In this document: one piece after another, positions 1,710 through 2,708 of the stretch
Position numbering within the stretch: the stretch's first letter is position 1
Layout: each line of letters opens with the position of its first letter
Assembly (NCBI GenBank): GCA_021770755.1
Contig: JAETQI010000006.1
Span: forward strand, 1-64,000
Origin: Lachnospiraceae bacterium
GTDB taxonomy: Bacteria > Bacillota > Clostridia > Lachnospirales > Lachnospiraceae
Length of the DNA: 64,000 nucleotides
Reading direction: 5' to 3'
The notes under the pieces: model-generated
What the model was told of the DNA's origin: nothing
The model's database searches: none
Seen by the model: only the letters and a program-made list of their open reading frames with translations
Made by a program: the position numbers and the translations under genes

Positions 1710-2516
1710 TTGAGTACGACAGAGCAGATGCATCAAAAGGATCTGGAACGTATCAGGCAGCTTCGGTATATGGACGACTCTTTCATGACGGTCTGCCTTG
1801 CAGATAATTTTGAAGGAGTGGAGCTGATACTCCGGATCATCCTGGGACAAAAAGACATAGAGGTCAGATCCGTCAGGACACAGGAGCTGATGAAAAATCT
1901 GCAGGGACGTTCGGCAATTTTAGATGTCCATGCAGTTGACAGCACAGGTAAAGAATTTGACGTGGAGGTTCAGCGGTCGGACGCAGGAGCAGGAGCAAAA
2001 CGGGCAAGGCATAACAGCAGCCTGCTGGACGCCCATATCTTAAAACCCAGAGCAGATACAGAAGAAATTCCGGACAGCTATGTTATCTTCATTACAGAAA
2101 ATGATGTGATGAAAGGAGACCAGGCAGTTTATCCGGTAGAGAGATATGTGAAGATCGGAAGAAAAAAAGTATTGTTTGGGGACGGATCACATATCCTATA
2201 TGTGAATGGAAAATATCGTGGAGACGATGAGATCGGAAAACTGATCCATGACCTGTCCTGTACCGATCCAGATGAGATGAACTATGAAGCCCTGGCAGAC
2301 AGGGCGAGGTATTATAAAAAGAATGAGAAAGGAGTCGCGGTTATGTGCAAAATTATGGAAGATATGAGAATTGAAGCTGAGCAGAATAGAGCAAAAAAGA
2401 TGGCAATCCGTATGATTAAAGCGGGTAAAATGTCATTGGATGATATAGCTGATTATACAGAGTTATCTCTTGAAGAATTAAAAAAACTTGAAGCAGAAAT
2501 CATACAGATGGTGTAA
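1710..2516 (+). CDS. Rpn family recombination-promoting nuclease/putative transposase (PDDEXK_2-like)
   Basis: FxxxFxDNxEGVELILRIIL..., DVHAVDSTGKEFDVEVQ, YVIFITENDV, ILYVNGKYRGDDEIGKLIHD. TTG start after aagaagg chosen by comparison with the copy at 41457. Confidence 0.85.
   Translation: MSTTEQMHQKDLERIRQLRYMDDSFMTVCLADNFEGVELILRIILGQKDIEVRSVRTQELMKNLQGRSAILDVHAVDSTGKEFDVEVQRSDAGAGAKRARHNSSLLDAHILKPRADTEEIPDSYVIFITENDVMKGDQAVYPVERYVKIGRKKVLFGDGSHILYVNGKYRGDDEIGKLIHDLSCTDPDEMNYEALADRARYYKKNEKGVAVMCKIMEDMRIEAEQNRAKKMAIRMIKAGKMSLDDIADYTELSLEELKKLEAEIIQMV
2343..2516 (+). CDS. possible internally initiated Rpn C-terminal product (57 aa)
   Basis: In-frame AAAGGAG-8 nt-ATG inside the Rpn gene: MCKIMEDMRIEAEQ... 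Confidence 0.4.
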   Translation: MCKIMEDMRIEAEQNRAKKMAIRMIKAGKMSLDDIADYTELSLEELKKLEAEIIQMV

Positions 2517-2528
2517 GGAGTCGCTGCT

Positions 2529-2708
2529 ATGTGTAAAATAATGGAAGATATGAGAAATGAAGCTGCAAGAGAAGCAGCAATCGAAGCTGAACAGAAAAGT
2601 GCAAGGGAGACCGCAGAAAGAATGATCAGGGACGGAGAGATGCCACTGGAAAAAATTGCACGTTATGTTCCAACAATCTCCCTTGAAGAATTAAAAAACT
2701 TGAAGTAG
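2529..2708 (+). CDS. free-standing duplicate of the Rpn C-terminal segment (59 aa)
   Basis: taaggag-tcgctgct-ATG TGT AAA ATA; MCKIMEDMRNEAAREAA... homologous to the tail of the preceding ORF; ends early because a 7-A run is 6 A here. Confidence 0.5.
   Translation: MCKIMEDMRNEAAREAAIEAEQKSARETAERMIRDGEMPLEKIARYVPTISLEELKNLK

What the first reader, a model, noticed from the sequence alone, without database searches (positions are those of the whole stretch)
1710..2708. Rpn gene with internal SD-ATG and a duplicated stand-alone C-terminal cassette: candidate intragenic antitoxin
Inside the Rpn ORF there is AAAGGAG-8 nt-ATG TGC AAA ATT ATG GAA GAT ATG AGA in frame. Directly after the stop, a second copy of this segment (2529-2708) has its own AAGGAG-8 nt-ATG TGT AAA ATA ATG GAA GAT ATG AGA. 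In E. coli, Rpn proteins are toxic anti-phage nucleases inhibited by a small protein translated from an internal start in the same gene. The duplicate would be a detached extra copy of such an inhibitor.
Basis: partly seen in the sequence, partly recalled or inferred. Interest (0 to 1): 0.8.

Follow-up and report, generated by a model that had tools for sequence, protein, structure and literature searches.

The report
Rpn nuclease gene with two tails
A gut-bacterium gene for an Rpn nuclease (a known phage-defence toxin whose own tail, made separately, is its antidote) carries directly behind it a second, different tail gene; E. coli has the same layout (rpnE-ypaA), and comparison with relatives suggests that the spare is a swapped-out or alternative tail rather than an extra dose of the same antidote.

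Summary
An Rpn gene (TTG 1710-2516) has an in-frame AAAGGAG-8 nt-ATG at 2343. A second tail ORF (2529-2708) starts 12 nt after its stop codon, and that stop overlaps the second AAGGAG. Across related genes the internal Shine-Dalgarno is strongly conserved: 27/31 and 31/31 genes in two subfamilies, against 3/298 and 6/227 at other in-frame Met codons. The intragenic tail is predicted to fold like E. coli RpnA-S (7TH0). So the Rpn L/S reading holds, but it is an already published kind, and E. coli rpnE-ypaA has the same 12-nt two-tail layout.

The stand-alone tail is not a copy of this gene's own tail. Only its two ends match well. Helix 1 is two four-residue units longer, the core belongs to another tail type, and a one-base shorter A-run cuts helix 3. 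In the nearest relative, a gene 97.5% identical just upstream of the internal start carries this second type as its own tail. E. coli one-tail rpnE genes sampled carry the ypaA-type tail. Most likely the spare is a displaced or alternative tail that does not neutralise its neighbour and can replace its tail by recombination. Translation, toxicity and inhibition were not tested here.

The parts
1710..2516 (+). rpnL: full-length Rpn-family PD-(D/E)XK nuclease, 268 aa, TTG start after AAGAAGGTG; LDVHAVDSTGKEFDVEVQ carries the D...ExQ core
   Evidence: PF12784 28.3 bits against cut-off 27.4; TIGR01784 50.1 against 52.1; motif by inspection of homologues
2328..2334 (+). internal Shine-Dalgarno AAAGGAG
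   Evidence: conserved against synonymous expectation
2343..2516 (+). intragenic rpnS: 57-aa tail with its own ATG, three-helix fold, repeat class 0
   Evidence: model m8ec0b647a74c; top PDB match 7TH0 RpnA-S, TM 0.72/0.88, rmsd 0.9
2515..2520 (+). second Shine-Dalgarno AAGGAG overlapping the rpnL stop codon TAA (2514-2516)
   Evidence: exact TAAGGAG form only here among 295 relatives
2529..2708 (+). stand-alone tail ORF, 59 aa as read: V-type core, two extra four-residue units in helix 1, helix 3 cut short by A6 instead of A7
   Evidence: 74 related small proteins
2320..2379 (+). direct repeat, first copy (SD plus tail head)
   Evidence: D1
2506..2565 (+). direct repeat, second copy, 85% identical
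   Evidence: D1
2709..2729 (+). out-of-frame remnant of the tail end (would read ...EIMQLV then TAA in the other frame)
   Evidence: alignment
2749..2799 (.). 24-bp perfect inverted repeat closing the unit; scored as terminator-like on the - strand only

Best explanation
An Rpn gene-within-gene toxin-antitoxin unit with two tails. Shown by sequence: RpnL reads 1710-2516, a constrained internal start at 2343 gives RpnS (57 aa), and a second tail ORF with its own SD begins 12 nt after the stop. Inferred: full-length RpnL is a DNA nuclease held inactive by RpnS through tail-tail contacts and used against phage, as in E. coli. The second tail is of another type, with a first helix two four-residue units longer. 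It is probably not a working inhibitor of this RpnL, but the alternative (former or next) tail of the same gene. Recombination between the repeated SD-ATG heads would fuse the nuclease domain to it and change L-S specificity in one step. Translation of 2529 by ribosomes ending at 2516 is likely but not shown, and the clipped third helix may mean that it is already decaying.
For: Internal SD: core present at 27/31 and 31/31 iATGs against 3/298 and 6/227 other in-frame Met; GGA at the SD Gly is the top of 11 Gly columns; GAG at the SD Glu is 31/31, top of 22; hybridisation to anti-SD stronger than synonymous resampling. Fold: intragenic tail best PDB match 7TH0. Tail lengths step by four residues: 57/61/65/69, 58/62/66/70, 64-80. 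Tail exchange: L225, 97.5% identical to the window over 122 nt just upstream of the start, carries the window's detached tail type as its own tail (88.4% with a 12-nt gap; 74.8% to the intragenic tail). L084 keeps about 86-96% DNA identity to L093 across the nuclease part and drops to about 56-61% in the tail, with V-type genes nested among T-type. L248 has the two tail types in the opposite order, 18-nt gap. E. coli: the 4 one-tail rpnE genes sampled (L206, L208, L209, L300) end in the ypaA-type tail; 16 two-tail loci give 8 distinct pairs of repeat numbers, none equal.
Against: No expression, toxicity or inhibition data for this locus. The direction of change (displacement against deletion) is not fixed. 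Repeat-number mismatch in E. coli is no more than independent assortment gives (0.5 equal pairs expected in 8, by hand from the listed values), and L248 has equal class but different type. The published mismatch rule rests on RpnC alone. L225 is itself broken (frameshift before the start, reverse-transcriptase ORF upstream), so it shows ancestry of the tail, not function.
Confidence: 0.6

Rival explanations
1. Extra antitoxin: the stand-alone ORF is a second, detached inhibitor of the adjacent RpnL, raising the antitoxin:toxin ratio through coupled translation.
For: Same head (MCKIMEDMR), strong SD overlapping the upstream stop, same 12-nt layout as rpnE-ypaA, whose product is made in E. coli.
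Against: +2 four-residue units, different core, clipped helix 3; a one-unit mismatch abolished inhibition for RpnC; two-tail pairs elsewhere are not matched in repeat number or type.
Confidence: 0.15
2. Relic: the second tail is what is left of a tandem rpn gene after deletion, with no present function; the SD-ATG survives because the break fell there.
For: Frame-shifted end; many broken and truncated rpn genes in the same genus; rpn arrays known to form by tandem duplication; the detached model does not retrieve 7TH0.
Against: The break sits exactly at the SD-ATG; the 59-aa frame is otherwise open; the layout recurs in other loci and in E. coli.
Confidence: 0.2
3. Immunity to foreign Rpn: the stand-alone tail neutralises RpnL proteins of other lineages that bear its tail type, such as genes in sister genomes or the C122 paralogue.
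For: Tail type shared with RpnL of G014, G017 and L225 and with own-genome C122; many rpn genes per genome.
Against: No direct test; repeat number would have to match too; helix 3 clipped.
Confidence: 0.15

Closest known systems
E. coli rpnE-ypaA (rpnE with downstream RpnE-S), Zhong et al. 2023, PMC10327210
   Same: Internal SD-ATG within rpnE, then after the stop a second tail whose SD overlaps the stop codon and whose ATG lies 12 nt after it; tails differ by whole four-residue units (K-12: 56 against 61 aa, that is class 0 against class 1)
   Different: In the window the two tails also differ in core type and the second is clipped; nuclease domains are distant; K-12 rpnE is annotated inactive
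E. coli RpnA L/S and RpnA-S structure 7TH0
   Same: Intragenic tail with own start; predicted fold matches 7TH0
   Different: No toxicity or inhibition data for the window protein; sequence-level match to 7TH0 is weak (E 0.18)
C. difficile rpn (PMC10327210)
   Same: Firmicute rpn gene with an RpnS made from an internal start
   Different: No stand-alone downstream tail described there in the text read

Membership tests
Rpn / PDDEXK_2 nuclease family (RpnL) | Profile match of the nuclease domain | tested here: met
   PF12784 28.3 bits, cut-off 27.4; just under the TIGR01784 cut-off (50.1 against 52.1)
Rpn / PDDEXK_2 nuclease family (RpnL) | PD-(D/E)XK core residues present | tested here: met
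   D...ExQ in LDVHAVDSTGKEFDVEVQ, the same in L248, the 41-kb paralogue and E. coli RpnE (by inspection)
Rpn L/S intragenic toxin-antitoxin | Internal SD and in-frame start before the tail, conserved | tested here: met
   27/31 and 31/31 against 3/298 and 6/227
Rpn L/S intragenic toxin-antitoxin | Tail varies in steps of four residues in helix 1 | tested here: met
Rpn L/S intragenic toxin-antitoxin | Tail adopts the RpnS three-helix fold | tested here: met
   Intragenic tail: 7TH0 top hit, TM 0.72/0.88, Foldseek E 0.65
Rpn L/S intragenic toxin-antitoxin | RpnL toxic, RpnS made and inhibitory, phage protection | not testable with these tools
   needs expression, start-site mapping and plaque assays
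Stand-alone RpnS (ypaA-like) | Separate tail ORF with own SD directly after an rpn gene | tested here: met
Stand-alone RpnS (ypaA-like) | Detached product keeps the whole RpnS fold | tested here: inconclusive
   Three helices predicted (pLDDT 82) but helix 3 is 7 instead of 14 residues; 7TH0 not among its matches
Stand-alone RpnS as cognate inhibitor of its neighbour | Matched repeat number and tail type | tested here: not met
   +8 aa and different core

The most novel reading that the evidence does not exclude
Two-tail rpn loci are specificity-switch loci in both Firmicutes and E. coli: the downstream tail is a stored alternative that replaces the toxin's tail and intragenic antitoxin together by recombination at the repeated start site, while its free product may cover the cell against toxin of the alternative type during the switch.
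Probability: 0.3. Interest if true: 0.65.

Novelty: new member of a known kind. Interest (0 to 1): 0.4.

Why it matters
It carries the Rpn L/S and ypaA-type layout into a Lachnospiraceae-like lineage and gives a concrete, testable role for detached RpnS genes. Their repeat number and type argue against a simple extra antidote and for one-step tail switching, which bears on the open question of how Rpn tails diversify so fast.

Tried and rejected
(1) 'The second ORF is a recent copy of the first': rejected, because the middle is of another tail type and the nearest relative carries it intragenically. (2) 'Detached tails always differ in repeat number': true for the 8 distinct E. coli pairs and for the window, L018 and L151, but L248 has equal class, and the E. 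coli result is expected from independent assortment, so no selection for mismatch is claimed. (3) Most other short tail ORFs in the genus (L094, L118, L124, L135, L153 and others) are remnants or interrupted rpn genes rather than clean stand-alone genes. (4) PADLOC has no model that fits these Rpn proteins. (5) Exact stop-overlapping TAAGGAG form: only in the window among 295 relatives. (6) Viral contigs gave one two-tail Rpn locus (L302; L303 has the same match values), with a less exact junction. (7) A -1 frameshift at A AAA AAC would restore the longer end; nothing supports it, so it was not pursued.

Full report
What is there. The window lies at the start of contig 9 (131,905 bp) of a 4.74-Mb draft genome. 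The Rpn reading frame starts best at TTG 1710, after AAGAAGGTG, and ends at TAA 2514-2516. It matches PDDEXK_2 (PF12784, 28.3 bits, cut-off 27.4) and falls just short of the NCBI Rpn model (50.1 against 52.1). An in-frame AAAGGAG-8 nt-ATG lies at 2328-2343. The stop codon overlaps AAGGAG 2515-2520, and ATG 2529 opens a 59-aa ORF. The two segments are alike far beyond chance (score 93 against a shuffled maximum of 36), but as a 60-nt head at 85% and a 40-nt end at 88% around a diverged middle.

Is the internal start real? I collected rpn genes from relatives. In the subfamily of the window gene (MCKIMEDMR heads) an SD core precedes the internal ATG in 27 of 31 genes, against 3 of 298 other in-frame Met codons. 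In the sister subfamily (IMMSLFD heads) it is 31 of 31 against 6 of 227. The SD Gly is GGA in 27 of 31 genes, the highest of 11 Gly columns; the SD Glu is GAG in 31 of 31, the highest of 22 Glu columns. Predicted pairing to the anti-SD exceeds synonymous resampling (-9.2 against -7.3, and -11.8 against -5.6 kcal/mol in the 14 sister genes first collected). The genes are related, so these are not independent counts, but the controls come from the same genes.

Is the product an RpnS? The 57-aa tail is predicted as three helices (pLDDT 81.5), and its best PDB match is 7TH0, E. coli RpnA-S (TM 0.72/0.88, rmsd 0.9, 42% identity). The Foldseek E-value is weak (0.65), as expected for 57 residues; a sequence profile also finds 7TH0, weakly (E 0.18). 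Tail lengths in relatives step by four residues, the hallmark described by Zhong et al. (PMC10327210).

What is the second ORF? Aligned to the first tail it has eight more residues (two four-residue units) in helix 1, another core (YVPTISLEE instead of YTELSLEE), and one A fewer near 2694, so that it ends LEELKNLK instead of the family's longer end. The model has helix 1 of 34 residues instead of 25 and helix 3 of 7 instead of 14. Its fold search does not bring up 7TH0. One related small protein, P0009, shows what looks like the same A-run shift, so this is not necessarily a sequencing error.

Where does it come from? The best relative with context, L225 (an uncultured Lachnospiraceae MAG), is 97.5% identical to the window over the 122 nt just upstream of the internal start, and directly continues into the window's detached tail type (88.4%, with one 12-nt gap), not the intragenic type (74.8%). 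L225 itself is interrupted. L084 and L085 carry V-type tails on nuclease domains nested among T-type genes. L084 against L093 is about 86-96% identical across the nuclease part and about 56-61% in the tail. L248 has both tail types in the opposite order, 18 nt apart. Other loci with a tail ORF after an rpn gene: own-genome contig 15 (L018), G014 contig 71 (L151), and the viral-collection contig behind L302.

E. coli comparison. In K-12, rpnE ends and ypaA begins 12 nt later, with AAAAGGAG overlapping the stop, the same as here. Of 5,426 E. coli genomes, 5,406 hold a match. I read 20 loci: 16 with two tails, giving 8 distinct repeat-number pairs (RpnE tail, YpaA): (0,1), (5,1), (5,2), (1,4), (6,4), (8,4), (5,0), (8,6), none equal. 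The 4 with one tail all end in the ypaA-type sequence. With these values independent assortment would give about 0.5 equal pairs, so this is not evidence of selection for mismatch; it does show that the detached tail is not kept matched to its neighbour. Zhong et al. already reported separate RpnS genes, their loss, and fusions.

How it most likely works. Shown: layout, constraint on the internal start, tail exchange among relatives. From the published system: RpnL toxic nuclease, RpnS inhibitor, a one-repeat change breaks pairing. Inferred: the spare tail does not pair with the present RpnL, and recombination at the repeated head can swap it in. Alternatives are a decaying relic and immunity to other Rpn proteins.

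Novelty. The kind is known; this is a further member, with a better-resolved case for tail switching. No expression data exist for this locus.

Noticed in passing
window 41448-42266 (+): A second Rpn gene (272 aa) with AAGGGAG before ATGATGTGT and a longer KEGIKEGI helix; no stand-alone tail seen directly after it.
   Followed up: partly
window 3914-4750 (+): A Cas7/Csd2 gene of type I-C (TIGR02589 250.9 bits, PADLOC Cas7c) with no other cas gene among the neighbouring proteins scanned.
   Followed up: partly
window 143-238, 629-721, 1413-1523 (+): Small hydrophobic ORFs: 629-721 matches Hol_Tox (PF16935); an almost identical repeat near 143 has a one-base change giving an early stop; 1413-1523 is similar in kind but unmatched.
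   Followed up: no
L094, L118, L124, L126, L135 (relatives' rpn tails): In five loci of five genomes a short hairpin with varying arms sits between AGGAGGT and the internal ATG of subfamily-B tails, mostly with an in-frame stop; a pattern search found two of them and no other exact copies in 38 genomes.
   Followed up: partly
L082 (G035:C21) and L186 (G431:C66): In both, an in-frame TAG stands at the same codon just before the SD of the internal start, leaving the tail ORF intact.
   Followed up: no
L225 (CAMQTN010000187.1): A reverse-transcriptase ORF, probably a group II intron, directly precedes the 3' part of the closest rpn relative.
   Followed up: no
P0009: A small tail protein whose end suggests the same one-base shift in the A-run as the window's second tail, with a different core.
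   Followed up: partly
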